Below are positions 1-46,600 of a stretch of 64,000 bases of DNA, piece by piece. Position numbers and translations under genes: made by a program. The stretch spans positions 34,339,422 to 34,403,421 of the forward strand of contig CM059570.1 in assembly GCA_030386875.1 (NCBI GenBank). The letters are read 5' to 3'. The notes beneath the pieces are model-generated. The model was given only the letters and a program-made list of their open reading frames with translations. It searched no databases and was not told the DNA's origin. Every line of letters begins with the position of its first letter. Position 1 is the stretch's first letter. This DNA comes from Morinoia aosen. Its lineage: Eukaryota > Arthropoda > Malacostraca > Amphipoda > Talitridae.

Positions 1-1937
1 ACACAACACACTTAGATCTGGCACACAACACACTTAGATCTGGCACACAACACACTTAGATCTGGCACACAACACACTTAGATCTGGCCCACAACACACT
101 TAGATCTGGCACACAACACACTTAGATCTGGCCCACATCACACTTAGATCTGGCACACAACACACTTAGATCTGGCACACAACACACTTAGATCTGGCAC
201 ACAACACACTTAGATCTGGCACACAACACACTTAGATCTGGCACACAACACACTTAGAACTGGCACACAACACACTTAGAACTGGCACACAACACACTTA
301 GATCTGGCACACAACACACTTAGATCTGGCACACAACACACTTAGATCTGGCACACAACACACTTAGATCTGGCACACAACACACTTTGATCTGGCACAC
401 AACACACTTTGATCTGGCACACAACACACTTTGATCTGGCACACAACACACTTTGATCTAGCACACAACACACTTAGATCTGGCACATAACACACTTAGA
501 TCTGGCACATAACACACTTAGATCTGGTCCACAACACACTTAGATCTGGTCCACAACACACTTAGATCTGGCACACAACACACTTAGATCTGGCACACAA
601 CACACTTAGATCTGGTCCACAACACACTTAGATCTGGCACACAACAAACTTAGATCTGGCACACAACACACTTAGATCTGGTCCACAACACACTTAGATC
701 TGGCACACAACACACTTAGATCTGGTCCACAACACACTTAGATCTGGCACACAACACACTTAGATCTGGTCCACAACACACTTTGATCTGGCACACAACA
801 CACTTAGATCTGGCACACAACACACTTAGATCTGGCACACAACACACTTAGATCTGGTCCACAACACACCTAGATCTGGCACACAACACACTTAGATCTG
901 GCACACAACACACTTAGATCTGGCACACAACACACTTAGATCTGGCACACAACACACTTAGATCTGGCACACAACACACTTAAATCTGGTCCACAACACA
1001 CTTAGATCTGGTCCACAACACACTTAGATCTGGCACACAACACACTTAGATCTGGTCCACAACACACTTAGATCTGGCACACAACACACTTAGATCTGGT
1101 CCACAACACACTTAGATCTGGCACACAACACACTTAGATCTGGCACACAACACACTTAGATCTGGCACACAACACACTTAGATCTGGCACACAACACACT
1201 TAGATCTGGCACACAACACACTTAGATCTGGCACACAACACACTTAGATCTGGCACACAACACACTTAGATCTGGTCCACAACACACTTAGATCTGGCAC
1301 ACAACACACTTAGATCTGGCACACAACACACTTAGATCTGGCACACAACACACTTAGATCTGGCACACAACACACTTAGATCTGGCACACAACACACTTA
1401 GATCTGGCACACAACACACTTAGATCTGGCACACAACACACTTAGATCTGGTCCACAACACACTTAGATCTGGTCCACAACACACTTAGATCTGGCACAC
1501 AACACACTTAGATCTGGCACACAACACACTTAGATCTGGCACACAACACACTTAGATCTGGTCCACAACACACTTAGATCTGGCACACAACACACTTAGA
1601 TCTGGCACACAACACACTTAGATCTGGCACACAACACACTTAGATCTGGTCCACAACACACTTAGATCTGGCACACAACACACTTAGATCTGGCACACAA
1701 CACACTTAGATCTGGCACACAACACACTTAGATCTGGCACACAACACACTTAGATCTGGCACACAACACACTTAGATCTGGCACACAACACACTTAGATC
1801 TGGCACACAACACACTTAGATCTGGCACACAACACACTTAGATCTGGCAAACAACACACTTAGATCTGGTCCACAACACACTTAGATCTGGCACACAACA
1901 CACTTAGATCTGGTCCACAACACACTTAGATCTGGCA
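1..1937. repeat. 22-bp satellite/minisatellite array
   Basis: About 88 head-to-tail copies of a 22-bp unit whose core is CACACTTAGATCTGG, so nearly every copy carries a BglII-type AGATCT palindrome. The array is already under way at base 1 and stops at GGCATGCTACAC near 1937. Variants cluster: a run with CTTAGAACTGG near 250-295, a run of four with CTTTGATCTGG near 385-460, and TCCACAAC units scattered from about 530 onward. It lies on the 3' side of the last visible DOCK exon, so it may be intronic. No coding role is apparent. Confidence 0.97.
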
Positions 1938-4115: not shown

Positions 4116-4278
4116 CTGGGAGCCTAGAACTTTTTCCTTCTGCACAAGGAGGAGCTGGGCAAAGGAGTCAAAGAGGTTAGCGACATCTGTCCTGAAGGAG
4201 TCTTCGTTGGTTCCACCCATCGCGCGCACGAACAGCAACCGCGACTGGATGCTGAACTTGAAAATGAACTCCAAGGCT
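4116..4278 (-). CDS. spg: DOCK3/4 exon 15 (last one visible)
   Basis: Acceptor TTGAACAG, donor GTGGGT, ends in phase 0. Residues 746-799 read [19 protein letters not shown] and [14 protein letters not shown], matching the ALEYLFKFIVQSR segment of DOCK3. The gene must continue to lower coordinates. Confidence 0.93.
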
Positions 4279-7200
4279 CTGTTCAATGCATTACAACACA
4301 TGTTAGTATCATGAATAGAGACATTATCCATGAAAAAAGTTGACCTTGGTCCCAATTTTCAATGCAATGGAACTCCGCACACAAGCCAGTAAATGCTATA
4401 AAGGTTGAATCTTAACACGACAGCAAGCCCTAAAGCCCAACAAAGGCTACCAGAAAGCACTTCGAGTGTATTGAATGAATTAAATTGAACCATGCTCCAC
4501 GTTATACCTTAACACAGAGCAGTTGTATTTAGGTAACTCACGCAAGTCCGTTTTTTCACTACACTTCACTAAGTTAGGAAAAATCAACAACAGTCACAAT
4601 TTAGCCGCGGTGCCTCGTTCTTAGTGAGGCAGTGTGGAGAATAATAATTTACCTATATCACATTGTCTTAAGGTGAGTGAGGCAGTGTGAAGTACAGTGA
4701 CTTACCTAAAGCAGCGAATGATGGGCTCCTGCTTCTCTGTCTGCGGACACAAGTCAGCAAGGTGTTTCACGCAGCTGATGAGGCCTTTGTGGACCAGCGC
4801 CGCCGCGAAGTGGCCGGTGATGTACGCGTCCATGACAGGGTTGAAATGCTCGAACTTGCGTTCCTCCAACATCGAGAAAATGAGAACCAGCGAGTGGAAG
4901 ACGTGTCCTGAGTGCTGCGTGCTGTTGCCCTCCTCAGTACTGAACATAGAGAACAGCGCGTCGAGAACGTCTTGCAGAAACTTGACGATTTCCTGGCCGT
5001 CCACTCGTTCCAGGCGACTCAGCGTCTCGCCGATGCCTTCAGGATCGCTTTTCCAGCGAAGTAAGGACAGCAGGTCAACTGGAAGAGGAGCCAGAAGTTA
5101 ATGATGTCATCTTCAGGAGGTAAAGAGATGTTGAACGAAGTGTAAGAACATTCTTTTGAACGTCGCTGTTACATACAATTTACAAATGAAGCCACAAATA
5201 TAGTGCTTGACAGCAAGCTATTTCTCCACTATTCAACGCTCATGCCGGTGTAATTATTTAACTTACAATACTTCTACAAGCTTGAAATCAAAATTAACTC
5301 TTAGCGTAAACTTTATACAACACTGGAGAAGTGGTGATAAATCTAATCCTGAATCTTGTGATACAGTAATGCATAAAATCTCAAACAATAGCCTATTCAA
5401 GTACCTCTCTTAGCTTAGAAGAGCACACTTGGTCCATGGTAAATAATTAATTTGCTATACACAGTCCTAACAAATGAGAACCAACCAACGGAATAACCAC
5501 CATTGCAGAGAATAACTTGTTTAAAAAACAAATAAGTTATGTTAATAAGACAACACACAAACACAAAGATTTCCCCACACAAATACACCAAGACTGACCA
5601 ATTTGAGCCAAGACTGACCATTTTGTGTAAGTTTGGTGGAGCAGAGCTCGGTCTCGATGACGATGAACTCCCTGACGGAGCGCTGGAAAGAGAGGGAGTA
5701 GACGCAGTCGAGTGCGGTGCGTGTGAGGAAGGGGCTACTGAGGTACTCAGCAGGGCACGCCAGGCGAGCCCTGTCCTCACACTTGTACACGCACAGCTCG
5801 TGGCTGGAGTCGCGCAGCGTCGTGCCGCCCTCCGCCTCCATCAGACGTACAAACGAGAACCCGAACAGTTTCTTCTCATTTTTCTCACGAGCTGCACAGT
5901 CAGAGTTTAGCTTATCCGCACAGCACATTGCAAATGTTTTCCAGATGTACATTCACAAATGAGTTATTGATTATTTTGGATCTAGTTTTACTAGAAGTGA
6001 AGAACAGTTTTTTAGTTCTTCATGTGACCTGCATAAGCAAAGTTTACATTTTGCATGAAGCCCGCTACATAATGTATAACAAGAAATGCATTCATCAAGG
6101 CCACTGGTCACATTTAGCTCAAACAGAAGTGAGAATTTCACCAAAAAGAAATGATGAATAGATCTAATTCACCCTGATAATGGCAATATAGTTCTACAGA
6201 AATATTTGTACAGTGTAAGAAATTTCCATTCAAATTGACCGACATCGAGAATTTAAAACACCAATATTATAAATATGTTAGATATGATGGCAGTTCAGCA
6301 AGCTCAGAGGAGAGTGTGTTACCTGAGGAAGATGTGAAATACAGGGGAGTATTATTGGTATTGCGTGACACAGACAATACTTCAGAAAATATAAAAATAA
6401 ACGTAGAGTCATTACAATCACACAGTTTATAAGCTGCAGCATTCAACACCAACAGCAGGGACTAATCAAAACACCACTACAACCAGACCAGGCACAAGCC
6501 GCACAACCACACAGGCACAAACCACAGCACTCCAGGACAAGCTACCGTAAAACCATTGACACAACAGGCACAAGCCACCATCACCACACAACAAGACTCA
6601 AGACACAGCACCACTATAATCAAACCGGGCACATCTGGAACATACCACAACACAACTTTAACAAAAACGGGAGCATACCACAGCACCACCACAACCAAAC
6701 CAGGAACAAGACGCACCACCGTCATTGCCACCATCACACTAGGTGCTATCCACAACATCACACAATTACGCCACAACACCATACACAAACCACAACACCA
6801 TACACAAACCACAACACCATACACAAACCACAACACCATACACAAACCACAACACCATACACAAACCACAACACCATACACAAACCACAACGACACCATA
6901 CAGAGCACAACAACACCACACACAAGCCACACCACCACACACAGCACAGCCAAAACACCATACACAAATCACAACGACACCATACAGAGCACAACAACAC
7001 CACACACAAGCCACACCACCACACACACAGCACAGCCACAACACCATACACAAACCACAACGACACCATACAGAGCACAACAACACCACAGACAAGCCAC
7101 ACCACCACACACAGCACAGCCACAACACCATACACAAACCACAACGACACCATTCAGAGCACAACAACACTGAACACAAGCCACACCACCACACACAGCA

Positions 7201-10200
7201 CAGCCACAACACCATACACAAGCCACAACACCATACACAAGCCACAACGACACCGTTCAGAGCACAACACCACACACAAGCCACACCACCACACACAGCA
7301 CAGCCACAACACCATACACAAACCACAACGACACCATACAGAGCACAACAACACCACACACAAGCCCCACCACCACACACAGCACAGCCACAACACCATA
7401 CACAAATCACAACGACACCATTCAGAGCACAACAACACCACACACAAGCCACACCACCACACACACAGCACAGCCACACCCAACTCACTGGAACAGTGGC
7501 GGTACTCGAAGCGAAGGTGCGCGCCAGCAAAGCGGTCAATGGGGATGGCGACTTTGATGCACTCCCCCCACCGCGGCGTGTTGTTGTGGTACAGCACCAC
7601 GGAGCTGTACTCGCTGCATGGGTCGCATCCCGTCGCTCCCGATATACACTGTGCGCACAAATGATTACGCTGCTAATGTGATTTCTGTTGACCAATGTTG
7701 AGTGTTCAAAAAAAAAAACGATATACACTGCACACAAATAATTACTCTGTTAACGTGATTCGTAGAGTGATATTGAGTGTTCAAGAAAACTATAACTCAT
7801 GTGGAATAGGAAACCCCTACTGAGAGCATTAAGAGCTTGAATATATTCATCAAAATGTATGCCTTTGACCAATTTTACCACATTGTAAATTAGCCAACAC
7901 GCAGGTCCAACACTAAAAAACTATAGAGGCAAGTATGAACGTAATAGTCTCCACAACAGACAAACAATAGAGGCAATAGTCTTCACAAAGTAAACTAAAT
8001 ACAATACTGATATCGACAAGCTCGATTATCTTTCAACCGACAAGAAGGAAAGCACTACTCACATATATGGGCGCCCCAGTGGAGTCCACGGCAACAACGG
8101 TGACCTCAATGTTTTTGCCGACGCTCTTACCACCGCGCTCAAACTCGCCGTAGCTGAGCGTGAGGTAGAGGTCGTTCCTGACGTCGCCAGGCATGATCAC
8201 GTCAGAGAAGCCAATCTTGCTTGTGGGCCTCACGTTCTTTAGGAGCAGCGGGTGTTCTTTGATGACCGTGTCCAGCTCGCCTGACAGCACCCGCACGCTC
8301 ACCACCAGCCCTGGTCACGGTGAACACGTAGTGAAGTACATGAATACGATGCAGCACTGGTGCTGCAAAAATTGTGTGAATTGATATATGAAGACCGAAT
8401 GTTAAGGGAAACGAATGTTAATTCCTACCAAAAACAAAAGATTCATTTCCATTTGGAAATAACATCTCGCTTGAAGAAAACTTTAGAATATGAATTCCAG
8501 TACGTCATTAGTGGTATGACGGAACAAATGAGGTGAAACTGTGAAAATAACATTTGCTTGAAATAAATTTTTTACAAGTTGTCAACTTCCGATCAAAAAA
8601 TAGCATTACAAAATAGAACAAACATTGACTATTTATTGAGATAACGCTGTAATTTTCTACATAAAGATCTAATAGTGAAAAATATTTCATTCACTTCAAG
8701 TGGGGACAACCCAGCAATTTATAATTTTTTGGCCGATCGTTTTTAAATTTGCAAAATAGGCCTATATGTATTTTTAAAAAAGAAGCACTTTGCGTATGTA
8801 ACTGTTTCGATTTTGGCCTTAGTTTTTGAGAAAATCGAAATACAGTGGTACCTCGGTTCTCGACCGCCTCTATACTCGACCAAATCGGTTCTCGACCAAA
8901 AAATTCGAGTAGAAAATGCTTTGAACCTCGAACAGATTGTCGGTACTCGACTAGCCGAGTCGACCCGAACGCGCTCCTCGGCCAGCGGGTAAGCAATAGT
9001 TAGACTTTGATCGTGAACGGAGTAAGACGTACGCAGTTTGTTCGAATACTGTATTTCTTTCCAGATTTAAACTTTTTCGTGTTGCTCTAGCCCTTAATTA
9101 TGGGTCCAAAGAAAGACAGTGATAAGGGGAAGGCAAAGAGGAAAATAGTGAGGACCACTATTGAACTGAAGAAGAAAATTATATTGCAAAATATGAAAGT
9201 GGTGTACGAGTGTCCGACCTCGCGTTGCAGTACGAAATGGCAAAGTCAACCATTTCCACAATCTTGAAGCATAAGGAAGTGTTAAAGAAAGCTGATGTTG
9301 CAATGGGAGTGCCAGGAATTAGTAAGCAAAGGCCTCAGATAATGGAAGAAATGGAGAAGTTGTTTCTTATCTTCACCAAGAAAAAGATGTTGGCAGGGGA
9401 CAGCATTAGTGAAGCTCTCATCTGTAAAAAAGCTCTTCAAATTTACGAAGATGTATGGATGTATTGCTTTGTTTATCGTTATCATGTACTGCTTGTGCAC
9501 ATTTACGTCTTCATTGTTGTTTAGATACACGTTCTTTTGATATTTTAGGTATTTTTCTTAATGGTAGGAATGGATTAAATTACTTTCCATTATTTCTTAT
9601 GGGAAAATTGGTTTCGGTTCTCGACCACCACCTCAGAAGGGATTATGGTTGAGTACCGAGGTACCACTGTACTAGCTTTTTATATAGTTTTTTTCGGACA
9701 TTTTGAAAGAATAGAAGTCAATGAGTTTTCATGCTAGAAAAAAAAGTTTTGGAATCCTTGTAACATTTTTAACAAACTAAGGTTCCAGTTTTCCCAAATT
9801 TTACATTCAATTTTTTATCACGGTTCAACATTACCAAAAAAGTGTTTTTTATTACTTCGAAAATCGCATATCAAAAGAAAACTAAAAAAAAATTGAAAAT
9901 CTGGATTTATTAGTTTGTTAGAATTGTTACAAGGATTCAAAAACTGCGCTTCTTTTTCTAGCATGAAAATTCATTGACTTCAATTCTTTTGAATTGTCCA
10001 AGAAAATTATATAAAAAACTAATATTTCCATTTTCTCAAGAACTAAGACCAAAATTGATTAAGTTACAGGAGCAAAATGCGTTTCTTTTCAAAAATTACA
10101 ATTACTGGGCTAATTTTAGAATAATCAACTACAAATAAAAAATCGCAGGGTCGCACCCCTCAAAACCCAGACCGGATGTTACCAGATAGAAGCGGCAGCT

Positions 10201-13200
10201 ATAGAATTATGGCCTGTCTGCTGAGTCAGCGGCGCGAGAAAACGCACACCAATTAACAGAAGCGCACGCCCGACATAACTCGAACAAGAAACTCCCCTTC
10301 AATGACATTTCTTTTTCTAAATCCGTTGAAACTAGGCAACAGCAGCAAATATTTTCACTTCAATCACACTGAATGTTAAGATTTTAAATACACAGATTTG
10401 CAAACTATTCACTACAAACTATAATCATCACAGGAATTGAAAATGAGTAGTCGGAAAACATTCGATAGAATGACGGGTTCAACAGAAAGATAAACTGATG
10501 GAGCAGCAACGAAAATGCTGAGCAGAGCAAAATGCACTGAAAAGGCCAAGCTAGCGATAGTGAGAGCCAAGTATAACTTTTCTACGTAAGAAGTTGAGGG
10601 AAGCGTTAGCATTTAGAAAGTTATTCTTTAATATTAAACCTAGAACAATGAAATTTGGTATACTAATAGGATATGCAATTGGAAATCATTTGTCTTCCAT
10701 AAAATAATGCGATTTTCCCCATAGAAAACGAGGTATTCATAGAAAACGAGATTTGCTGGATTTTTTTCAAAATGCATCCCCTCCAATAGTTTTAGACTAA
10801 AAAAAGTAATTTTAGTGTGTCATTGGATGCGGAAAGACTTGTCAACTCCATAAACTAACATGGCATTCTCAAAACTTTAGTTTGAAGTTGAAAAAACATG
10901 AAAAATTCCAAGGCATGTCTTCTTTCATAAAATTCCGTACCTTATGACGTCACAACATTTGATTTTTATCAAAAGTTAATTTTGAACTGCCATTTTCGTT
11001 TTTGGAATGCCCACGCCTTTCTACATCCAATGATACCAAAATCATTACTGTAGCCAGGGTGCGTACAGGCTCTGAGGTTCAAAATTCCACTACTTTTTCA
11101 TGACTTTTTATGCCAACCAAATCACATTTTCACTACCTCTCTCTGCCCAAAATAATGTCACACAAAGTTAAATTGCAGCACAATAAATGTATTTCAGTCA
11201 TAAACTTCACAGAACATTCATCATTACTTGCAGGTCTTGTTTTCATAAATGTGTAAATGATCATCACAACACCAAACAGTCATGCTGGACAGTTCAATAG
11301 CATCTGCTATGCATTTGCCAGTGCATTAAGTTTGTCATTAATTTCCGCATTCAGCCCCTTGAGTTGTTCTTGCTTGTCTTTGGCTGATTTCCTCAATGCA
11401 TTTGACTTTGCCAGTAGGCGCAAATCATTCTTGTCCTCTGCCTTCCGTGCAAAGCTGTCAGCATCCTCCACCAGCGCTTGCAGACTCTCCTCCATCCTCT
11501 TCCGTTTTGTCTTCAGGTTCTCCACTTTATCCAGTTCTCTCTTCCTCTTCTCTCCCTTCTTCTGCTTCTCTGCCTCTTCCTTCTTTTGATCCAGGTAGTG
11601 TTGATAGCGCTGTCTGCCCTGTGAAGCTGAAAAGAGGAGTTTCTTGGAAATGTCAACCTTGGAGATACCTCCTACATGTTTGATGTGGTCCATGACCACT
11701 CTCTGCGCCACGATGGTGTTCTCACCCATGTTGACTTCCATGAGCTGCTTGCTCACAGAAAAGCCCCTTTCCACTGAAGCCTGGCCATGTGACAGGACCA
11801 GTAGCATCTTCACAACCAGCCACAGTTTCTTGAGGGAGGATGTGGCCAGCTGGCTGCTCCAGAAGACATCTAGCCAATCAGTGTCTTGCTGAAAACTGTT
11901 GAAAGTGCAGATCTTCCTCTGTGCCTCATCAAAGAACTCTGAAAACTGGCTCATCACCTCATCGATGTCACCCTGTGGTAGCCTCTTAGCATCGCTGAGC
12001 AGCTGCAGACAGTTTTTCAGCATGGACTTGGTCTTCTCTCTCTTTGTGCGATCCACAAAGACACTTGGCACCAGCCAGCCCATGTTTCGGGCCATGTTTC
12101 AATGCCTCATCGAAGAGGAGGACGAAACCGTCTGCAGTTTTGGCCCTCTCCTTCAGCACACTTGAGAAATGAGGGGCCAGTCCAAATGTCGTCAGATAGG
12201 CGCATTTCTTTTCACTCATGGTGAACTTGCTGGCTGTGAGGGAATCCTCAAACATTGAGGCGAAAAGCCAAGGAGTCTGGTTTGAGCACTTGAAGGACAG
12301 GTGCGATGCTACGGTCTTCAACGCCCAAAGCGTCTCGGCCTTCAGGACTTTGTCCCTTTGCACAAAGTCAGTTAGAGCCGTTTTCTTGCGACAGCACTGA
12401 CAGGTGCAAGTTTTGACTGATGGCGATGAAGTAGAGGTACTAGCAGACTCTGGTACTGCTGGCACGGTCTCACTGCTCTCAGTCTGAGCCTCCGAACTGC
12501 CCTCAGCAGGCGTCGGAGGATCGGTCGATGGTTGGGAAGTCACGAAAAAATCCCCGATCTTCGGGTTGGCAAGTCTCGTCGTCTGAGCTTTCACGTTCTT
12601 GGCATGCTTTGTTCCCTTTGCATGACTCCTCACCGCCGCTATTCCATTGTTGGCGATGTCGAACTCCGACTCGCACGCGGTGCAAACCGCCATTGTTTTC
12701 AGTTTGGGATGCGGTGCTATCCATTGTTGAAAATCTTTGTCTCGCAACCACAAGTTGTTGAAAGAACAACTGCCTGGCATGACGATAATTCCTCAGCTCA
12801 GTCTCGGCACCGTAACTCTAGTCACACACACACGGGATGGTCAAGACCGATGATAAAAACTCAGCTCGAAAATGTTCAACAGTGGCGACAGGTCAACAAT
12901 GGTCCGAGCGAGCGCGTGTCTTCAGTCACACTGAGCGCGTTTGGTTTCACGTGACGCCTGAGAACCAATCAAAATCGCGGACACTAAAGACGTAGCTGTA
13001 TCAACCAATCAGAGCCCAAGTAATACTCGAAGGTTACTGACAACGCCTCGCTCAACGCGGACCAAACGGAACGAAAATTTTCAACAGTAAAATTTTCTTT
13101 TCACGAAAATCCTAAAATTTCATGACTTTCGATGACCATTTTTAAAATTCCACTACTTTCGAGGCCTTGAATTTTATTTTCGAAATTCAACTACTTTCCA

Positions 13201-16200
13201 TGCTTCTCCATGCCTGTACGCACCCTGTGTAGCTCAAAAACTAAAGGAGGAGATGCATTTTGAAAACACACATTCCAACCCTCCCAAAAGAGGTAAACAA
13301 AGAAACATGAACAATCTAAATTTTTCTTTATTATTATTGGATGGGTCAGCTAGGACCCTTGAAATCATTATACAGTAATAAAGAGACATAGAAGATGATA
13401 TAGCAACGTCGCGCCGTGAAGAAAGTGCCAAGGGGGAGGTGTAACATGATAAAATACCTCTTCCCCCTCCCTTCCCCCCCATACTTCAAACCTCCGTAGC
13501 GGGCGAACGAGAGAACGTACAAACCTCATTTTTTTACAGGATGTACCTGACATCTTACCCTTCCTATAGAAGCTAAAATCAATATCTCTAGAAAATTTGA
13601 CATTCTGGGCGAACGCTTCCCTTAAGTCATGATTGTGTTTCCAAACTTCCTTTGAAGTGCTTCTGCTGCGCTAACAATATGCAAATGTCTGAACAAATTA
13701 GAAGAAATAGAACAGAAATACCAAGTTATAATGACTGACTTCAGTGCATATCTATGATATAATGTGGTTTCGCTAACTTGATTAAAATAGAAAATTGGAC
13801 TTGAATACTCACACAGCTTACTCTCATTCAAAATGACAAACAAGGCATGATAACACAAAACAGATCTGATCATCTATACCAAGCAGATGAACACAACACA
13901 AGAAGCAGACCAACAAAACACACCGTAACATTTGCACACAATCTATGCTCTCACCACAACTGGTGTTGGTGGACACGGCCGAGTATTTGCCGTTGAGTTT
14001 CTTGATGATGAATTCGTGCAGCTGCCACATGTCCTTCTCGTCCGTGTTGTAAAGTTTGGACGCCAACTCCACCTGAGCATGGCGCGCGAGTTTTACAATG
14101 GGTTATGTTCCACCAATAACATCATAAAAGCTCCCCATGGCCATAGCATATCAATAGGTTAGACTGAATACGTTAAAGTCTCTCTAACAGTAACAAAGGC
14201 AATTTAAAAAAGGAAGGACAAAGGCTCCATTTGGTATAGAGTTTAGGAAAGGCAGAATCTATGCACAAGGTGTGTTCCCACACCAGATCTCCAGTGCATA
14301 GAATCAGTAAGTTGATTAAAATGTTTGTGAAACAAGATAAAAGTTGAAGAACGTAATAGTTACTGAAAAACAAGACAAAAGTGAACCGAAAAAAGATAGT
14401 CATTAACAAAAACAAAAAATATCTTATTTCTATAAAAGAGAAAGCCTATTTAACTTTCAGCTGTGGATCTCATATTTCCCCTATGAGCGCTAATTCTCTT
14501 AGACACGATAGCGGTATCCCCTGAGGAGTAGCATAGCAGAATTGGACAAGTGGATAAGATTTGTATCTAGAGTAATCGTACTCTTATCACCCCAAGGACT
14601 GAAAAAACTTGAACTTTTAAATTTCACCAAATGCATAAAATCAAAGAGTCTATGAACACACCTCTTACAGTCCTGCACAGGTTGTATACAACCTTCTCTA
14701 AGTACAACGTAGAAACCATAAAAATACCGGGGAAGATCCACATCCTATGTTCAATTCAAACAGAAGTAAAGTAGCCCAAAAAAATTTTTTGGAATACTCC
14801 ACATCATAAGACATTGGAAATTCCTCACACCCAAAATTAGAGCTCATTTGACTACCCTCAGTTTGCGTAATTCTGAGCTCATCTTAAAGAACTTGGTAAA
14901 TTATGAGGTGACTGTTAATGGAAAATTATTCCAGGCAGCACACACAAGCTTGTTTCATACCGTGCAGGTGGCACTTGAAGGATATTGATGGTAAAATAAC
15001 CTCGATCACTCCCATTGGCTTTGGCCTCATCAATAATTTCATAGTTGAATAAAGAAAAAGAACTAAATACTCCTTCTGAGCTCGAGCCTCATAGTAAGTT
15101 TAATACTTGTATAACAATGGTAAAAAAACAAAGGCACTTAGACAAGAAATTCCTTGAGCCTCATTGTGTGTCTAACTCTTGGATAAGAAAAGTAAAACCA
15201 GCCAAGACATGCCCACTGGTCTCAGCCTCATAGTGAATTTAATGCTTAACTAAAAAACGAAGACACTCCATGACATCCCTCGAGTCTCATCGCGCATCTA
15301 ATTCTGGTATAACAAGAGTAAAATCAACCAGGGCGCTACCACTGACCTCGGCTTCGTTAGCCCTGAGCGTCTCCATGTCGAGCCTGATGACTGTGGCGGC
15401 GTAGGGCCGGCGGTACAGCTGACACGAGGTCTTCTTGCTGCTCTCTGAGAACACCATCCTGCCAACCCTCACCACCTGGCACACGAGATACACCTCGCTC
15501 GAGAAGTCCCGTGCGCCAAGGTCCTAATGGGAAATACCGTGGATGGAATATCAGTCATCAATATGGGAGGTAACAAGAAAGTTTAGTGATGGAGTAAGTA
15601 GTTAATTATAAGATGATGGAATATTTAACAATGATGATGGGCTAGACTCATCGTCCAATTAAATTGAGTCGTACTGCGAGACAAGGTCTTCATGGAATGT
15701 CAGTCATCAATATAGAAGGTAACAAGGAAGTTAAGTCCAATAAACGTGTTACCCTCGAAAAAATACGCCGAGCGATTTTCGTCCCATTTCAACCTAATGC
15801 TATGGATTAATATGAATAGGAATTGTTTTCTAGGGCAAAAAATGATGTGAAAACAATGAAGGTTCAAGATTTCAGATTGTAGGCGTGGCCCCAAACATGC
15901 TTCTAGTGTAATATCCAGCTTGCATCAGCCTGAATTCATTCTGTTCTCTTCTGTCTTTTTGAATGATTTTTAATGTTAATTATAGAGATAATAAGAGTTA
16001 AATGTGTGTTTTCAAGTGTACATTGGTTGTTTTGTGTTCTTGATTTCGCTGTGTTTTTGTGTCTGAATTGTTTCTTAATGCACTGTTTTTCTTTCACTTT
16101 CAGTCACTCAGAGTTACAGTAAAACTAGTGTATTATTATTTCTTGGCAAAGCTATTTCTTCACCTTATAAAACCAAGTGTTGATCTGGTGAGTGTTCTTC

Positions 16201-19200
16201 ATTGTACAGTTTGCTTTGCTTGTATATGTTTTCTGTTGCTCTAGGCTAAGACTTACCTTATGTTGAGCATGATGTTTTTTTTTTGTCATATTGGTTCTTT
16301 CATTCCTTCATGTTGAAAGATTAGGTTTTCCAGTTTTGATAGATTTCAAGACCATTTTTGTAATAATATTTTTCCTGAGTTACTCCTTTGAATTTGTAGT
16401 TGAATGATTTTATTTGAGTTTGATTTCATTCATATTCATTTCATAGTCCATTTTTTCAGTTGTTTTGTTTCATTTTTTTGTCAGTGCATCTACTTTATTT
16501 AGCATGAATTTATTCTGAGCATGATTTATTTTGCTCTGCTTCTTACTGGATTTTGAAGTTTAATTTTGAGGAATCCAAAATGAATGGTATGGTTTATTAT
16601 CTTCTTTCCTGCATTTTTATTATTGTTTTATCTCTGTTTTCAGGGTTTTTTATTATACTGGCTTCTGATTTGACTTCACTGTTTCTGAGCCCTGTCACTT
16701 GTCATTGCATGTACAATCACCTGTTCCACAATAAACCATCATTTGTCTAAACCAGTTTCATTACTCCCTCACTATGTGGTTCACAAACAGCAACGTGTAA
16801 TGATGGGTAAATGCTAGCACCCCTAGTCCCTCGTCCTCTTACAAGAACAATACTGAATTTTATAATTGAAGGGCACAGTTTTTAAACATTTTCAAATTTC
16901 TTTTAAACAAATCTTTTACTTATATTTTTAGAAATATATGTCGTTGTCCCAATTGAGCAAGCGTGTCACTCAATATAAAATATGGAATCAATGAAAGAGA
17001 TCACAACTCCAGTTAACGTTAACAAACGGAAGCAAAAGGATGTATACAATATACTACCCACCCAATACTTCATCGCCCTGTAATCCCGACTGAGCAACGT
17101 CTCGTGTGAGTGTAAAGGGAAAATACAAAAAGGAAAAATATAAAAAAGGAGCATAAAAACGATTTTTGCACATCATTTAAATGACTTCGAGAAATAAATG
17201 ATTTCAAAACTTTTCAAAAGTCATTTTCAGCACAATATCAAGCTTCCCTCGATTTTTGCTCTACCTCAATAAAACTTGGCATCGATCTCAAACAAATCAG
17301 TGAGTTATGATCAAGAGGTTAAAACCTGATAGAATTACATTCGCTTCTAAACATGTATCAAGCTAAAACTCAAGAGCCTTATTGATAAATGAAACAAAAT
17401 AACTTGGGAAGTAATTAAAACGGTCCAATTAATAGATAGCAATAAAGAAGTTAGGGCATGGAAGTAGATAGCTATAGCCCTACAACAGAGCTGCCACTGA
17501 CAGCAAAACAAAGCAAGATGAAACTGTGGTTCTCTCATTCACAGCTATCAGAACTCATTCCGTACGAGGGTGAAGTCATAAATGATGCTTCAACATAAAA
17601 GAGGAAACTCTTATAGAATCGGGCCTAACTGAGCTCAAAATATAAATATAATCACACATGTTTACCAAACATAAATCAAGCTATTGGCCATAGCATCAAA
17701 ATACAGTATTAAATTCAATGATGCGTTAAAGTTACAGTGACCATGCAAGTCCCAACAAATCTCATCGAAAATGATATAGTCCCGAACAATTCACAATACA
17801 GCATACATGATACAGACAGCAATAACTTAAAGTAAATACAATACAGTCCCAGGCAACAATCTAGTAATCATGATAGAGTCCCAGGCAACAATCTAGTAAT
17901 CATGAGACAGTCCCAGCAAACTAACAATGAACATGGCACAGTCTCAGTAACCAACTTACTACAAACACACCAAATACCTCCCAACAAACTTCGAAGGCAC
18001 ACTCACAGTGAACAAGGTGCAGTTGCTGGTAATGCGATCGATGTAGTTAGCAAAGCCTTCCTTGGTGAGCCTGACCAGGAAGCGTTCACTGATGAAGCGT
18101 TGGCGGCTTGCGTCATAGAGAGAGAAGTAGACCTCGGAGTCCTCGCCCACAGTGTAGGTCATGTCGCGCATGCAGAAGAAGAGGTGGTGGGTGAGGGCGC
18201 GGGGTCTGGCACCGGGCAGAGCCCGGCTGCTGCTGCGGCGAGATGCTAGGCGCTGCGAGAGGTGCACAGCATCAGATGTGTTATGACAATCGAGCAAGCA
18301 GAATTTATGCAGCACTTGAGAGGTGCAAGTTATGGTTCACTTGCGGCCAAACAAGTCTTTATACATGCTAAAACTGTAAATGAAGTTTGAAGATCTCTAA
18401 TGGAGTGCACGAAAAAAATTTGGGTGCCTTGGGATTTCAAATTATCATTTTATGTATAAATTAAATCATAAAAGGTAGTTTCTGAAGTGATACATAATTA
18501 TTGTCTGTGATGACATCTGCGCTATTTCGAAGAAGGGACATAAGCATGATGAGGGTTGTAACGGTGAGGGAAAAAATATTTAAAGAGTGTGAAATTAAAA
18601 AATAAATGAATGAATGTGGAGCATTTTTAATGGATGAGAGCAGAACTCAACCGCTGAATGGATTTGAGAGCGAAATATTGATTTCGAGACATAAAATCAA
18701 ATGAGAAAGAAACAAAAAATAAGTCTGTAGCAGGTACAAGTTGGTACTAAAGCACGCACAAAAAGTACATTAGGCTGACACATGTAAAATATGAAAGAAG
18801 ACTCAAAAAGGATAACAATAGAAACATGGAAACAAATTATAATGACTGAGGTAAAGGAAGGAATGAATACTAAATTATGGACAGTGAATACCCAATTATA
18901 TACCCCCAAAAAATAAAAAGGCTTCATCACAAAAAAAAAAATCTACACGTACAGACAATTGTTTAGCTCTAAGAATGATTAAAATTTCATGGATACTGTA
19001 TTTAAATGAATACTTAATTCTAATCAGAAATCTCCAAACCATTCACCAATAATGTATTTGAAGAACACGTCTATGTGCAATGAAAGATGCATAAAATTTT
19101 TCCACTCTTTCATATTAATCAAATTCTTGCTGGTAGAATATGGAGACAACGCCATCCGCTACAGCGGCTCAATGGCCAGTCAAACAGGCAATGGCTTCTA

Positions 19201-22200
19201 ATTTAAATAAAAGACAAAAAGGACAACAACAAATTATAAAACTTGTTTACAAAAATCATTGAAAAACAACAAAAAGACACTAAAAATCAGCAATGGTGAA
19301 TTATAGCAGAGTACAAAACATGGTATTTAATAATTAAATTTAACACGAAAAATTTCTATTGAAGTCGGTACTACAAAAAGATATTCGAAAAATCAAGAAA
19401 AATGACAGAGCAGCAGCAAGAAAGCAGTAACGACCAGATAACTGAAAACATCAAAAAAAAGCCTTTGCAAAGACCAAGGCCGAAAACACACGGAACTGAA
19501 GTGGAGTTGGTCAGGAGAGTCAGGAAAAAATCTATCATGTACTCAAAATATTGAGTACACACACTACAGCCCAAACGGACACAATAACAATGAAAGGATC
19601 GACAAAAACACATTAACGTCTAATCTTTCTCATCTGGCATCATGAATAAAATTAGTGAAAAAGCAAACAATAAAAAATAAAAAGCCAATTTAACTCACCA
19701 AAGTTTGGCTTTGAGAAGACTCGGTGCTTTGAACGTGCTGCAAAAGAGAAGACATGTTAGCAGCTAAATAGGAACAGATCGCAGGCGGGGCAGGCTGTGT
19801 GCGGTGGTCACTGGCACGCCCTGCAACTGCTGTCCCCCACCGCCACGTTAACACAACTACTACTAAGCATCTAACCGTACAATTAGGGAGTTGCGATGTA
19901 AGCCTCAAACGTAGCGTAGCAAAAAAAATGGAAAACCAGGGTAAAACTAGTACAGATAATTAGGATTAGTGACTGAAACGGAGGCGAAAAACCTCCCATC
20001 ATATAAAGATAACAAAAATAAGACATTGTAGAAGATCGTTCTTCCATGAGGTTCCTATTTACTTTATCCAACACGCCAAGCAACTAGAAACTCTCACTTG
20101 CACCCTGCACCACGGAGTTATCTGGCTTCAGTAAGCCATGTTAGTTGGGTGGTAATCTTGGCACGAGATCGTAGTGTACACGAGGCTTTAAATTCGGCAC
20201 TCAATAACATTAAACAATGACATACAAGTACACGCGGAAAAAAAATTTACCCCCATCATTAAATGTAAAAAAATTAAAGCCTCACTAGCAACTAGCAGAT
20301 GGCTAAATAATTTGTGCATGGTATAGTAATTAATGATATTACGCTACAGAACAAGAGCGTCTGAAATAAAAAAAAAACAGCTCATACACTAATAAGAGTC
20401 AACCAGTGATATCGTAAATCATGAAAAAATTCATGTTAAAAATAATTGTGCTGATAAAACATCTACAGGGACACGCCATACCAGCTTAAAGAAAACAGGA
20501 TAAAATGTACAAGAGAACTTAGCTTATCTAAATAAACAGATTGGAGCAATAAGCAAAGAAACTAAAAAATACAAACTTACTTTTTCTAACTCCTCTAAAG
20601 AAACCCAAGACTCAACAACTACCCAAGTAGAATTTGTAACTCCAAGATACGTTTGAAAGTTGTCTCAAGAATACACCTATACAGTAGGAAATTTTACAGA
20701 AATTTCTGCGACAGTCATCTTAGAAAACTATTCATTTGCATCAAGCAATATTCAATTTCACTCTTCCCAATGACACCAGCACCCACCAACTGATAAAGTT
20801 CGACGGCGCCGACCGCGTCCACGTCCACCATGACACCCTCCACACGAGGCACCAGGTCCAGGCCGAGCTTCCTGTGTGGGTAGGTACCGGCATCACAACG
20901 GCTTGCATGATTCCAATGATTCAAGGCGCAGCACAGCCTTTGGAGCACTACGATTGCAATGATCCCTGGCGCAGCACAGCCTTTGGATCATTACAGCCGC
21001 ACTACGATTGCAATGATCCCAGGCGCACCAAAGCCTTTAGATCATAACAGCCAAACTACGATTGCAATGATCCTAGGCGCAGCACAGCCGCATCACGATT
21101 GCAATGATCCCTGGCGCAGCACAGCCTTTGGATCATTGCAGCCGCACTACGATTGCAATGATCCCAGGCGCAGCACAGCCTTTGGATCATTGCAGCCGCA
21201 CCATGATTGCCATGAACCCAGGCGCAGCACAGCCTTTGGATCATTGCAGCCGCACCATGATTGCCATGAACCCAGGCGCAGCACAGCCTTTGGATCATTG
21301 CAGCCGCACTATGATTGCCATGAACCCAGGCGCAGCACAGCCTTTGGATCATTGCAGCCGCACTATGATTGCAATGAACCCAGGCGCAGCACAGCCTTTG
21401 GATCATTGCAGCCGCACTACGATTGCAATGAACCCAGGCGCAGCACAGCCTTTGGATCATTGCAGCCGCACTATGATTGCAATGAACCCAGGCGCAGCAC
21501 AGCCTTTGGATCATTGCAGCCGCACTACGATTGCAATGAACCTAGGCGCAGCACAGTCTTTGGATCATTGCAGCCACACTATGATTGCAATGAACCCAGG
21601 CGCAGCACAGCCTTTGGATCATTGCAGCCGCACTATGATTGCAATGAACCCAGGCGCAGCACAGCCTTTGGATCATTGCAGCCGCACTACGATTGCAATT
21701 ATCTAAGGCACACCACAGCCTTTATATAATTACCAGACCATCCGTGACTCGTTAAACAGAGTTATTTTATTTTTATCTAAACTTTAGATCATGCTATTCA
21801 CTAGGGTAAAATAGTTTAATAACAATGAAAACATCACTACTAAACTTGCTGCAGAGCCAATAGTAAATATCTGTGTTAAATGGATATTGGTGACATGACC
21901 CACAATATCGCGGGCGAGATAATTATGACAAGTTGGGATAAGGAAAATATTAATTTCCACCACAGATTATTGGTACGACTTTAATGATCTGAAATACAAA
22001 ACAATGTTGAATTTCCCTTATACTTGGTATTAGCAGATTCTCTAATTTTTCCCAACCATTTTCCTGAAAGCCTTTTACTGAATTATACACTGACTTATAA
22101 CTAAAAGTAGAGCGCGAATGGGGATAACCAAGCCAACAAATGCCCAGGCAAGCAAGCCAAAAAAATTAACAATGTCCTATCAATAAGCAGATAATTACCT

Positions 22201-25200
22201 ACGACACAAAACAGCCATTTTTTAATCTCAACGACCCAAAGAGCACAACAGCGCTTTGTTAATTATTTAGACTCAAGGAATAAAATGAGCGATTTGTTTC
22301 AATTTTCATTTATAACAACCCAAAGCACCCAACAGGGGGCACAAGTATTGCAGTCAGGATACTTTCTTAAAATAAAGCTAGCCTTGGATAACTGTTGAGT
22401 GTACTACTTTGCTGTCTTATTCGCAAGTCCTCCAAAGGCTTTAGAAGATAAATCAAAACAAGTTCTTCTTCGCGTTTCACAAATATGATGCACCAATGAT
22501 GGAAGAGATCCTACCAAAATACTTTGAAAACTTAACGTAAATATCTGATGAAAACCCTTAGAAATGAATGTACTAGCAATCCTCTCCATAACAGTAAAAT
22601 AAATCTGAGACGGGCAGCTTAGGATATAAAATTTGTTAGAAGATTTTTTGAGATTTCGCAGAGTTTATCGTCCGAAAATTATTGCCCAATCTGGAGCAAT
22701 CATGGGAGCGCGTTTTTAATGAGATCAGCATTGAAATTCAAGAAGAAATGAATACTACCCTCGTAAATAAGGTACGCCGCTTTAGTGAAGAAATGAAGCA
22801 AAATTTAAATAAAAAAAACTGTAGCAGCAAAGCGATCAATCCAAATGTGTGAAAATTCAAGATTTAAAACTCTTCTTGCTACAAAACTGTTGAGCATCCT
22901 CAGAGTCATTATTAATAGAGCAAACATACTCGGCAGTGAGACCTAATAACACAAGAAATTAAACTCAAGCTCATGAAAATCTCATACAAATTTGAAATCC
23001 TAAAATGAGACCATGTAGTCAATCTAAACTTTAAAGATATGACACGCTCCCTGGAATGCTTTCACAAAGCATCATTCTGAAATTTAAATACTTCAAGACC
23101 ATTAGTTGATGTCATCAACATCATGCCTATCTGAACCAATAATGACCATCAATAACATCTGATCTCAAGACAATAAATATTACGAATAAAAGAAGCGAGA
23201 CAGAGGAAAACAGAATAAAACATTTAATTCTTAAATGAATGCAAGAAATTAAAAGTAGAAACGCTTTATTCTGTAACCCCATACATAAAATTTTAGATTG
23301 AGTGTTGCTTGCTTAGTTTGTCCACCCAGACACACATTACATTGAACACTAAAATCTGACCACAACTTTTTATTTTCCTAAATTACATTTTATCCCAAAG
23401 TTACCCAAAAATAAAAATATGAAAACCGCCGTTAGAACCAAAAACGCATTTGCACAGCTCAAGAAGCAACACTACAGAAGGATAGGAAGGAAGTATGGTG
23501 ACCTGTTGCCCCAGTCGATGCGGCGCGTGATGCAGATGTGGAGCTGCGTGATCTGGTCAGAGGTGAGGGTGGCGGTGATGAGCTGCCGCCGCCACCCTGC
23601 CACCTCCAGCATGGCCCCGCGGATGGCCTCAAAGTCCACCAAACTCTGGCTGCTCACCGCCGCATCGTCGCGGGCACCGCTCGGCAGCTTGTGCTGCAAC
23701 ACCCGCGCCGTTAGTTGCATCTATGAGGCGCTTATTGCATGCTGTCGCACGCGCGGTGCGTGGCACCAGTACGTTCTGTATATTGGCTTGAGTAGTAATG
23801 GAAATATTTCTGACCATTTAGCAGTAAAGGACTCGCCTCTGTGCTTTAGTGTGGATTTTGTCAACACCCTTTGATACTATTATTATTCAGATCCTTTAAC
23901 TTGTGTAGTTTACTGCATGGTAAAGAGGAAAATAGATGAGTCCCCTCATTTTATTTAGAGTTCAAAACAAAGCCGACAATAAAAATTTAATTGATACACA
24001 TCGCATCATAAATGAATGCTGTTTAGTACTTCTAATGTCTTCAGTAGTTATGGATTCATTTTATAGAATTAAGGAAGAATTACACATACGCTAAAAACTG
24101 CATTAAGAAGAAAAACTAAAGCCATCTGCTAATAGTTATTGCCTGCAGCAAACAGTTCCTATCCTTAAGCATTTATTTATTTATTCAAGGTTTAACCATT
24201 TATGCTCCCCTTAGCGTTCGATCGCACAAGAATAAACATTTTCACGACACAATTCAACCAGTTGTTGAATTGAGCTTATCAACGGTAACAAATTAGGTTG
24301 ACGTTTCTTATATTATGCATTGATGTGACTTTCTTCAACTCTTCTACACTTTCTTTGACCACCATTTTTGTTGTAAATGAAGTTTTTACAACTCTGGTGC
24401 ATACAAAATGTCGCGAAAGTCATGAAAAAATGTAAACCAAATCTCAAGGAATTAGGTGAAATGCCAGGCCGGAAATTAATTAGGGTTAAATTATGTAACT
24501 AGTATAGTATACACGGACCGTATACCACAATGGCAAAGAATGAATTTCGTTTGAGCGTGTAATTCCAATGGGGGTGAAAGGGTTAAACTCACACACGATA
24601 CTCGCCTCTGAAGAGGTAGGCTTGGTACAAGCTTAGATATTTACCAAGGTGAGTTGCAACACTCCTATAGAAATGTAGTGATCGCATCTTGTATTCCCCA
24701 ATACAAGTAGCTCTGCCATTTTTGAACAGTGTGGATAACATGGCAAAAAATTCTGGTTCCAATGAGCTGAACACACACGGCCAACCAGAACCACTCACCA
24801 CAAACATGTCCTTCCATATCTGCCCCCACTCTCTGAGGACGGCAGCTGCCTCCTGCACCACAGCATCCTCTATGGGGATCACCAGCTCACGAGATCTGCA
24901 AGACATCCAAAAGTTTTCACTTCCATTTCACAAGCATGGATGTCAAACAGAGAAAAACTGTACATAATTCGCCAGTTTACGAGGTCTGCAAGACATCGAA
25001 GAGTTTTCACTTCCATTTCACAAGCATGGATGTCAAAAAGAGAAAAACTGTACATAATTCACCAGTTTATAAGATCTGGAAGACATCCAAGAGTTTTCCC
25101 TTCTATATCACAAGGATGGGGGTCGAGCAGAGATAAACTGTACATAATTCAACAGTTCACGAAATCTGTAAAACATCCAAGATTTTTCCCTTCCATTTCA

Positions 25201-28200
25201 CAAGCAAGGTCAAACAGAAAAAATTATACTATTTTCAAGCAGACTAGCATATTAGATAAAGTAGTTGTGTGCCGATTGATCAGCAGCGATAACAATCAAC
25301 ACTACACACTGAGAGAAATTTTTACACACCTGTGTGTGTCAAACGATTATTCAGAAATATTTTGTTGCACATTGAAGTATTTCCTTTGATCACACGTCAA
25401 AGCGGATGAGAGAGTTAAATCACATATTCACATTACAAATGCCTCAAAAATGTTTGTAGAAAACCGATCTGTGTTCAGATTTTGTGAATGGAGTACAATT
25501 CTCCATAAAAAACTCAATACCATCGCTTATTTTTCTTCAAATTTTTAGACGTTGTCTGTATATTAGTGTAATCGGTGGTCAATCTAAGAAAGTGATATTT
25601 ATGAAAATGAGTGACTTACGTCAAGTGTGTTATTGTCGGTTTACTTTAAGTGCGTCGTATAAGCCCATGCCACGTAAAAGTGTGTCGTAAGACATTGACT
25701 GATAATGTATATTGTTGACACACTTGTGTGTGCTGGTTTTGTGAGAATTTGACACACCTAAGTGGGTTCATTTTGTTACAGAATTTTTCTGTTTATTGGC
25801 TGATTTTGGCCCACGGTAAAAATTGCTTATTTCTTGTTGCAGTGCGAAATGATGCCAGAGTAAACTCATCGCTATACTAGCCAAATTCCTAATTTCTTTC
25901 TTTTGTCAGGAAAAAGATAAAATATTAAACTAATAACACGTTTTCCGCGTTTCTGCGGTTAACAGATGGTTTGGCTAGGTTGAAAGTTACAGAACTGAGA
26001 AATTGATTTTGCTGCCAAGATACATTTATAGCCTTCCAAAGAAATATGAAAAATACAATTGCTCAGTAACATTCCACCTAATATAATGAGCGTTATTTTT
26101 TTAAAAAGGTCGCAAAACAGAAGAAACGTCATTCATTTATACCGGTACGCGAATGACCAATTTACCTAGTGATACACATATGTTCTAATTCGCGGTGAAC
26201 GTGTTAAAGTACCCTAAGTACAACAAAGGGTTCCCAAAGGAAGAAGGAGAAAAAACCTTTTAGTATGAAATTAAGGGAACCAACAATCTACGCACAAGGT
26301 ACGTCTCACACCCTACGCTTATAAACAACAAGAATGAAAGAAGAATATGAAACAAGATAGAAATTGAAAAAGAAAGATTAGGCTAGATGTTAGTTTAAAC
26401 CTCACTAACAGCAGCAAAGGCATTCCAAAGAGAGGAAAGAAGAAGGCACCATTTAGTTCGAAGAGAATGCGGAATTTAGGCCCAAGGACAGAAACAGTAA
26501 GTCGAGAAAAATTTAACAAACAAGTTGAAAAAGAAAGTAGTAAGTGCTGAAAAACAAGACAGCAGAGAACCAAAAAAAGATGGTTCATAACAAAATAAAA
26601 AACTTATGTTTTGATAAAAGGAAAGTCTACCTAACCTTTGGTTCAGGACCTCACATGTTTTGCTTAGGAGCGCTAATTCCTATAGATGCAATAGTCGCAT
26701 CAGCCTGAGGAGAAATAAAGGAATAGCAGCTAAAAAATGGCAGCAATGAACTGAAAAAATACTATATCAAAACTTCTATTCAACAAAAAAAAGGCCTACT
26801 AAATATTTAGCTTGACACCTCTCATCTTCCCTGTACAAGCGCAATAGTTGTATCCTCCTATAGGGATCGTCAGGAAAAATACAATTTCCGAATAATCTTA
26901 ACTCTCAACAGCTGCAAACATGCAAAGCAAACGTACCATGATAGTGTGCAACCTATGAACTTGCTGTAGGTTGGCTTCACATCTGGCATCATCATTATTA
27001 GTATGTAATACTACTTCTGTTCAAAATAATTGTACCAAAGTAATTTCAAGATTTTCTATAAATAGTGCTAATTTCTTAAATTGCTTTCCACCCATTTTCG
27101 TGATAGTTTTCCAAAATTAATTATTTATTAATGAGCTCAAAGCGTGGTCTAGTAATATCAAGACTGCAACACTAAGGGGCTAAAATATATAGAGAGATGC
27201 CAATAGGTACAAAAGTTGTCCATGACCTCGACTGTGCATGCCCGCCAAGCTTCAACGTCTCGGATTACTTCAGTTCCACTTTCAGTGCTTGGATTAGAAC
27301 GTCCCTAGCGCGTGGTCGCTGCATTGACTGACAGAGAAAAACGAGCAGGGAATCTGCATTTAAGTTTCTCCAAAATCTTGTAATCACTCGCTCCTAAGCC
27401 AACAAAAATTGCAGAACGTCAAGAGAGGGATCTGTTTGAACTACACACGAGTTAATGCTCAGCTTGAATTTCTACGATGACGGAAAAAGTGGCAAAAGAT
27501 GCTATAGCACTGGGAGGTCCACAACCAAACAAACCTGAGAAAGAACATCATGAGTAAGCAGCGCCCAACCACACAGTAAACAAGAAGCACAACTCTAACG
27601 TGTTGCTGCATTTCTGGGATGCAATCATCGCAAAAGGCTAGAATTGTTAGCGTCCAGTAGTGGCAGCTGCACAGTGACAATGCACTTGCTCATTCAGTGT
27701 ACCTCGCGCGGAAGTTTTGGCTAACCACAGCATTTCCCAAGTATTAGCCAATTCCATTTGTGCTGACTGATCAGCATAAACAAGAGTCGGCACTTTTACC
27801 GTAATCGGCAGCTTTGCCGAAATCGGCAGCTTTGCCGAAATCGGCAGCTTTGCCGAAATCGGCAGCTTTGCCGAAATCGGCAGCTTTGCCGAAATCGGCA
27901 GCTTTGCCGAAATCGGCAGCTTTGCCGAAATCGGCAGCTTTGCCGAAATCGGCAGCTTTGCCGAAATCGGCAGCTTTGCCGAAATCGGCAGCTTTGCCGA
28001 AATCGGCAGCTTTGCCGAAATCGGCAGCTTTGCCGAAATCGGCAGCTTTGCCGAAATCGGCAGCTTTGCCGAAATCGGCAGCTTTGCCGAAATCGGCAGC
28101 TTTGCCGAAATCGGCAGCTTTGCCGAAATCGGCAGCTTTGCCGAAATCGGCAGCTTTGCCGAAATCGGCAGCTTTGCCGAAATCGGCAGCTTTGCCGAAA

Positions 28201-46544: not shown

Positions 46545-46600
46545 CCTCAAACACAGACTTCTATCTCAGTACAAATTCACAGGCAGAAGAAGTCTTCACT

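What the first reader, a model, noticed from the sequence alone, without database searches (positions are those of the whole stretch)
4625..25230. Tandem repeats are seeded at splice sites of one gene
Seven of the 28 internal splice sites in this DOCK gene have a tandem repeat starting at, containing, or within about 45 bp of the site: exon 4 acceptor (90 bp x4), exon 6 acceptor (54 bp x15), exon 8 donor (32 bp x6), exon 9 donor (about 68 bp x5), exon 12 donor (84 bp x7), exon 13 donor (20 bp x2), exon 14 donor (53 bp x2). The units are unrelated in sequence and length, so the common factor is position. This suggests a process that duplicates DNA at exon-intron edges (selection sparing the exon, slippage, or repair at transcription-linked breaks). 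I know of no named system that does this.
Basis: partly seen in the sequence, partly recalled or inferred. Interest (0 to 1): 0.78.

Follow-up and report, generated by a model that had tools for sequence, protein, structure and literature searches.

The report
Tandem duplications sitting on splice sites
In this arthropod genome short pieces of DNA that include or touch the edge of an exon have been copied in tandem more often than pieces inside introns, a pattern known as "mirages" from amphioxus whose cause is still unknown.

Summary
In the window 8 of 13 independently detected intronic arrays lie within 45 bp of a splice site (1.75 expected). The unseen second half of the same gene did not repeat this (1 of 6, 0.27 expected); unrelated CCT chaperonin genes did (15 of 35, 4.4 expected). 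Pooled unseen data: 16 of 41 (4.6 expected, 0 of 40,000 simulations). Nine of 113 splice sites carry a duplication that spans the boundary with 3-24 exonic bases. Against this: measured by coverage instead of by count, true sites (24 of 112) hardly exceed interior positions (15.2%), because a few interior arrays are very long. This genome has 115 cuticle-protein matches, so it is an arthropod's. Best explanation: local tandem duplication seeded at exon edges, tolerated because the exon-proximal splice site stays intact. The seeding step is inferred, not shown.

The parts
4116..33354 (-). DOCK gene (DOCK1/2/5 type), exons 3-15 with their introns
   Evidence: one open frame of 755 aa, Pfam DOCK_N, DOCK-C2, TPR_DOCK, DOCK5 match
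24879..25206 (-). 90 bp array at the exon 4 acceptor; units carry the AG and 17 exonic bases; 4 copies, all with AG
   Evidence: TRF score 474; unit alignment; spans the site
20909..21723 (-). 54 bp array ending 37 bp before the exon 6 acceptor
   Evidence: TRF
17748..17989 (-). degenerate 32 bp array after the exon 8 donor (strict core 17841-17916, 90 bp away; relaxed 17 bp away)
   Evidence: a copy of the exon end is suggested but no better than shuffles (score 24, shuffle maximum 27)
15543..15736 (-).
   Evidence: alignment score 65 against shuffle maximum 24
15081..15330 (-). degenerate copies after the exon 9 donor, offsets 126 and 198
   Evidence: score 43 against shuffle maximum 25; not found by TRF
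13881..13922 (-).
   Evidence: TRF score 63; not in the ungapped scan
7640..7789 (-).
   Evidence: alignment score 60 against shuffle maximum 22
6771..7478 (-). TG-rich array of about 84 bp units starting 10 bp after the exon 12 donor
   Evidence: TRF; relaxed TRF 6467-7488
5588..5625 (-). 20 bp x1.9 over the exon 13 donor; 7 exonic bases, GT kept
   Evidence: TRF score 69
4623..4708 (-). 53 bp x2 over the exon 14 donor; 3 exonic bases, GT kept
   Evidence: score 36 against shuffle maximum 22

Best explanation
These are mirage-type duplications. A local DNA event (fill-in of a staggered break, or replication slippage) makes a tandem copy of a piece of about 20-270 bp that overlaps or abuts an exon edge. 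The copy lies on the intron side, the exon-proximal splice site stays intact and is still used, so the change is nearly neutral; some copies later expand like minisatellites. The excess is most simply explained if such events start at exon edges more often than inside introns. Shown: the duplications, their overlap with the boundary, the excess by count in unrelated genes, and that it fades beyond about 90 bp. Inferred: the break or slippage, preferential seeding, and that splicing ignores the copies.
For: Unseen data: 16 of 41 arrays within 45 bp, 4.61 expected, 0 of 40,000 simulations, still P 2.5e-5 or less when any one gene is left out; 10 of 41 at 1-45 bp (not touching the exon) against 2.97, P 1.7e-4. 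Re-placing whole arrays within each intron: 16 against 3.88. CCT genes alone: 15 of 35 against 4.4; strict TRF 9 of 27 against 2.89, P 7.5e-4. Boundary-spanning duplications at 9 of 113 sites: 4 in DOCK, 5 in CCT genes; 5 donors, 4 acceptors. The splice dinucleotide is kept in the nearest copy in 7 of 9 (8 of 9 if the gapped alignment of the E12 acceptor is used). Arrays near exons have larger units than far ones (strict TRF median 43 against 28 bp, P 0.04).
Against: Second half of the same gene: 1 of 6 arrays by the ungapped scan, 0 of 5 by strict TRF, 0 of 15 by relaxed TRF. Coverage measure: array sequence within 45 bp at 24 of 112 true sites against 15.2% of interior positions; decoy donors inside introns 12 of 50, as many as true donors (14 of 58); boundary spanning 8 of 112 true sites against 10.1% of interior positions. 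Rotation of coverage in the window P 0.14-0.18. No excess in introns over 4 kb of the unseen set (0 of 5, 0.16 expected). No RNA data; splice sites rest on homology, frame and motifs.
Confidence: 0.5

Rival explanations
1. Even seeding, uneven survival: tandem duplications arise everywhere in introns, but those beside exons last longer because deletions or insertions that would destroy them would also harm the splice site, and because part of one copy is under constraint.
For: Dispersed repeats found within the window cover 0% of intron sequence within 100 bp of splice sites and 15% beyond 500 bp (the latter includes part of the 18 bp array), so interiors are more disturbed.
Against: Predicts older arrays at edges: strict TRF match 85% near against 81% far, P 0.25; relaxed 78% against 71% (far set holds many chance arrays). 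Predicts a gradual fall with distance, but arrays are fewer at 91-360 bp than expected (5 of 41, 14.3 expected).
Confidence: 0.2
2. Barrier: arrays start anywhere near an exon and creep outward by duplicating their flanks until the exon stops them, so borders pile up at exon edges.
For: Excess at 0-45 bp together with a deficit at 91-360 bp (5 of 54 in all data, 18.2 expected).
Against: Several boundary cases have only two copies (E12 acceptor, E13 and E14 donors). Array length near and far is alike in the ungapped set (median 152.5 and 149.5 bp) and not different by strict TRF (150 and 90 bp, P 0.48), although relaxed TRF shows longer arrays near exons (143 and 73 bp, P 0.007).
Confidence: 0.12
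3. Splicing function: the repeats are kept because they add splicing enhancers or spare splice sites.
For: In C. elegans a minisatellite is enriched in introns beside alternative exons of genes with several splicing decisions (PMC4039745, passages read); the TG-rich E12 donor array resembles known GU-rich regulators (recalled).
Against: Units share no sequence; both donors and acceptors are affected (14 and 10 of 24 near arrays). At the E4 acceptor an in-frame stop lies just upstream of the authentic site (ORF start), so use of upstream copies there would add a stop.
Confidence: 0.08
4. No real excess: the pattern is an artefact of counting arrays and of the reader's choice of gene and distance.
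For: Coverage measures are weak and the second half of the gene is negative.
Against: The 45 bp limit was fixed before the CCT genes were examined; the excess there holds with four detectors, two placement nulls and after leaving out any one gene.
Confidence: 0.1

Closest known systems
[quoted passage not shown] the original Adh paper was not seen)
   Same: Tandem units of tens to about 160 bp that span the 5' or 3' boundary, include some exon, and often keep AG or GT.
   Different: Here in an arthropod; many arrays near exons only abut the boundary; an excess by count is measured over several unselected genes. Splicing and instability were not tested.
Variable internal tandem repeats in human segmental duplications (PMC2812944, passages read)
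   Same: Minisatellite units, some at exon-intron boundaries.
   Different: There they lengthen exons or make new introns in young paralogs; here exon frames are intact in old single genes.
Direct repeats of new Daphnia introns attributed to staggered double-strand breaks (PMC4202315, passages read)
   Same: An arthropod; direct repeats near exon edges; a possible mechanism.
   Different: There repeats of 4-12 bp between the exon end and the opposite end of a new intron, or inside new introns; here larger units at one end of the intron.
Tandem duplication of proto-splice sites as a source of Drosophila introns (PMC2891723) and dual-specific splice sites in tandem repeats (PMC10809524); passages read
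   Same: Tandem copies that carry splice motifs.
   Different: Those make new introns out of coding repeats; here copies sit inside existing introns.

Membership tests
Mirage | Tandem repeat whose unit spans an exon-intron boundary | tested here: met
   9 of 113 splice sites: DOCK E4 and E12 acceptors, E13 and E14 donors; CCT genes on C3 (donor), C4 (two acceptors, one donor), C9 (donor). Only these are filed as mirages.
Mirage | The same, for the arrays that lie within 45 bp but do not overlap the exon | tested here: not met
   14 of the 24 near arrays lie at 1-45 bp (for example E6 acceptor, E12 donor, E9 donor); they are mirage-like neighbours, not filed as mirages.
Mirage | Both 5' and 3' boundaries can be duplicated | tested here: met
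   5 donors and 4 acceptors
Mirage | Many but not all copies keep AG/GT | tested here: met
   7 of 9 nearest copies as printed; 8 of 9 with the gapped alignment; the C4 donor copy lost GT
Mirage | Normal splicing is not disturbed | not testable with these tools
   no RNA data
Mirage | Length instability between haplotypes or in somatic cells | not testable with these tools
   one assembly only
[quoted passage not shown]
   the scan covered offsets up to 400 bp only
Dual-specific splice sites in tandem repeats | Intron length a multiple of the surrounding repeat unit, same motif used as 5' and 3' site | not tested
   no call addressed it

The most novel reading that the evidence does not exclude
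Exon-intron edges are mutational hot spots for tandem duplication of about 20-270 bp in arthropods as well as chordates, through something tied to the edge itself (transcription- or splicing-linked breaks), so that intron ends are continually rebuilt by copying their own splice sites.
Probability: 0.3. Interest if true: 0.85.

Novelty: new member of a known kind. Interest (0 to 1): 0.6.

Why it matters
In the papers seen here mirages are described gene by gene in amphioxus, with an unclear origin, and are proposed as a route to new introns. Finding them in an arthropod, with an excess by count in unselected genes, points to a more general process and makes its cause testable by a whole-genome count and by population data. 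My ten paper searches listed no paper that uses the name mirage, or reports an excess of tandem arrays at splice sites, outside amphioxus; boundary repeats in human segmental duplications are reported (PMC2812944). The library lacks most subscription journals and I read only passages.

Tried and rejected
Rotation and coverage nulls: reported as evidence against, but not used as the main test, because they let arrays run across exons and weight each array by its length.

Transposon dilution of intron interiors as the whole cause: judged insufficient, since the excess fades beyond about 90 bp and a deficit follows.

Splice motifs as the trigger: unclear. Decoy donors inside introns are near array sequence as often (12 of 50) as true donors (14 of 58); decoy acceptors less often (12 of 174) than true ones (10 of 54).

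Amphioxus as the source: rejected. The assembly has 1.99 Gb in 29 contigs and 115 cuticle-protein (PF00379) matches. That this family marks arthropods and that amphioxus genomes are near 0.5 Gb is recalled. The species is not identified; the telomere-motif search did not complete.

Dropped or left out: the E10 donor alignment (query and target overlapped); DOCK exon 16 (ends not settled); 9 of 33 adjacent CCT exon pairs without a frame-consistent splice pair, where single-site scores were used or the site was dropped; 1 of 9 multi-exon CCT genes (contig C22) not fetched and others held in part; adaptin hits listed but not fetched; the DOCK relatives on C19 and C20 were fetched but not used in the count, since few of their exons were found. 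A first pass over the CCT genes with less sequence gave 9 of 22 arrays, 3.14 expected.

Full report
Gene and genome. Exons 3-15 give one open frame of 755 aa with Pfam DOCK_N (4e-70), DOCK-C2 (1.5e-52) and TPR_DOCK (1e-47); a partial concatenation matched human DOCK5 at 9e-85. The window is C15:34339422-34403421 of a 1.99 Gb assembly in 29 contigs. The assembly has 115 matches to the cuticle family PF00379, which marks an arthropod (family range recalled). The species is unknown.

Repeats. The seven repeats of the finding exist: four are found within 45 bp by strict TRF, one by relaxed TRF, two only by self-alignment. Three more were missed: E12 acceptor (77 bp x2), E9 acceptor and E10 donor. 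Four in the window span the boundary: E4 acceptor (17 exonic nt, 4 copies, all with AG), E12 acceptor (9 nt in the gapped alignment, 5 in the ungapped one), E13 donor (7 nt), E14 donor (3 nt).

Test in the window. An ungapped self-match scan (offsets 8-400; shuffles give 0.9 segments at score 15) finds 13 arrays in 29.9 kb of introns; 8 lie within 45 bp of one of 26 splice sites, 1.75 expected if arrays are placed at random inside their intron, P 5e-6. Strict TRF gives 6 of 13 (1.17 expected, P 1e-4); relaxed TRF at score 50 gives 8 of 29 (2.11 expected, P 3e-4), a set in which shuffles yield about 13 chance arrays.

Test on unseen data. The second half of the same gene (exons 17-27, 10 introns, 25.0 kb) gives 1 of 6 arrays by the ungapped scan (0.27 expected, P 0.25), 0 of 5 by strict TRF and 0 of 15 by relaxed TRF: no replication; one further array lies 49 bp from the E21 acceptor. 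CCT chaperonin genes, held for 8 of 9 multi-exon genes, some in part, give 15 of 35 arrays within 45 bp of 66 sites in 55.7 kb, 4.4 expected, 0 of 20,000 simulations; strict TRF 9 of 27, 2.89 expected, P 7.5e-4; relaxed TRF at score 100 14 of 32, 3.77 expected. Pooled unseen data: 16 of 41, 4.61 expected, 0 of 40,000 simulations; P 2.5e-5 or less on leaving out any one gene; arrays not touching the exon, 10 of 41, 2.97 expected, P 1.7e-4; at 91-360 bp 5 of 41, 14.3 expected. Re-placing whole arrays within each intron gives 16 against 3.88. By intron size: below 800 bp 5 of 11 (2.42 expected, P 0.058), 800-1600 bp 7 of 11 (1.11), 1600-4000 bp 4 of 14 (0.92, P 0.011), above 4000 bp 0 of 5 (0.16).

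Boundary-spanning copies elsewhere. Five CCT sites: C3 donor (13 exonic nt), C4 acceptors (5 and 24 nt), C4 donor (23 nt), C9 donor (16 nt). In all 9 of 113 sites, scan threshold 13.

Result against. By coverage, 24 of 112 true sites have array sequence within 45 bp against 1433 of 9408 interior positions (15.2%); decoy donors 12 of 50, decoy acceptors 12 of 174; boundary spanning (threshold 15) 8 of 112 true sites, 12 of 224 decoys, 949 of 9408 interior positions. A few interior arrays of 1-2 kb supply much of the interior coverage. Counts bear on where arrays begin, coverage on how much sequence they fill; I give more weight to counts for a claim about seeding, and this is a judgement.

Mechanism. 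Tolerance is easy to explain: the copy is intronic and the exon-proximal site stays intact. Tolerance does not explain excess. Longer survival predicts older arrays at edges, which is not seen (85% against 81% match by strict TRF, P 0.25). Outward creep predicts longer arrays at edges, which the ungapped and strict sets do not show and the relaxed set, rich in chance arrays, does. Preferential seeding fits best, by staggered-break fill-in or slippage; that step is inference. Staggered breaks are the published explanation for direct repeats in new Daphnia introns (PMC4202315, passages read).

Known kind. Tandem repeats spanning exon-intron boundaries are named mirages in amphioxus; their origin is called unclear, and copies are reported not to disturb splicing (PMC3087553 and PMC3902484, passages read). 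The boundary-spanning cases here meet the structural features; splicing and instability are untested. Human boundary repeats in segmental duplications are also in print (PMC2812944, passages read). I therefore call this a new member of a known kind, in another phylum, with a measured excess whose cause is open.

Noticed in passing
G000 contigs C26 and C27 (L022-L028): Seven intron-less chaperonin frames that cover at least 469 of 490 profile positions, one on C26 and six on C27 between 56.8 and 71.8 Mb. They look like bacterial groEL, so these contigs may hold bacterial DNA; not compared with bacterial genes.
   Followed up: no
G000 C20:64.98-65.01 Mb and C20:65.44-65.47 Mb (L013-L018): Two copies of a DOCK-like gene about 460 kb apart, about 96% identical over their longest aligned stretch of 7.3 kb. 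Similar pairs of matches about 0.6-0.7 Mb apart occur on C12 and C1: recent duplications or assembly duplicates.
   Followed up: partly
window 27787-29951: 18 bp x123 array deep in intron 3, 2.9 kb from the nearest splice site: the largest array in the gene's introns and a counter-example to the finding.
   Followed up: partly
window 1-1937: 22 bp x88 array, 95% alike, which starts at the window edge, in the DOCK gene downstream of exon 15.
   Followed up: no
window 41958-46565: Two long open frames on the minus strand (1138 and 396 aa) that look like a non-LTR retrotransposon with endonuclease and reverse transcriptase (label by recall, not searched).
   Followed up: no
window 11307-12792: Two overlapping open frames (263 and 268 aa) that look like a DNA transposon inside intron 10; no Pfam match for the two stretches scanned.
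   Followed up: partly
introns of DOCK and CCT genes: Arrays are fewer than expected at 91-360 bp from splice sites (5 of 54, 18.2 expected). Found after the fact and partly forced by the excess at 0-45 bp; unexplained.
   Followed up: partly
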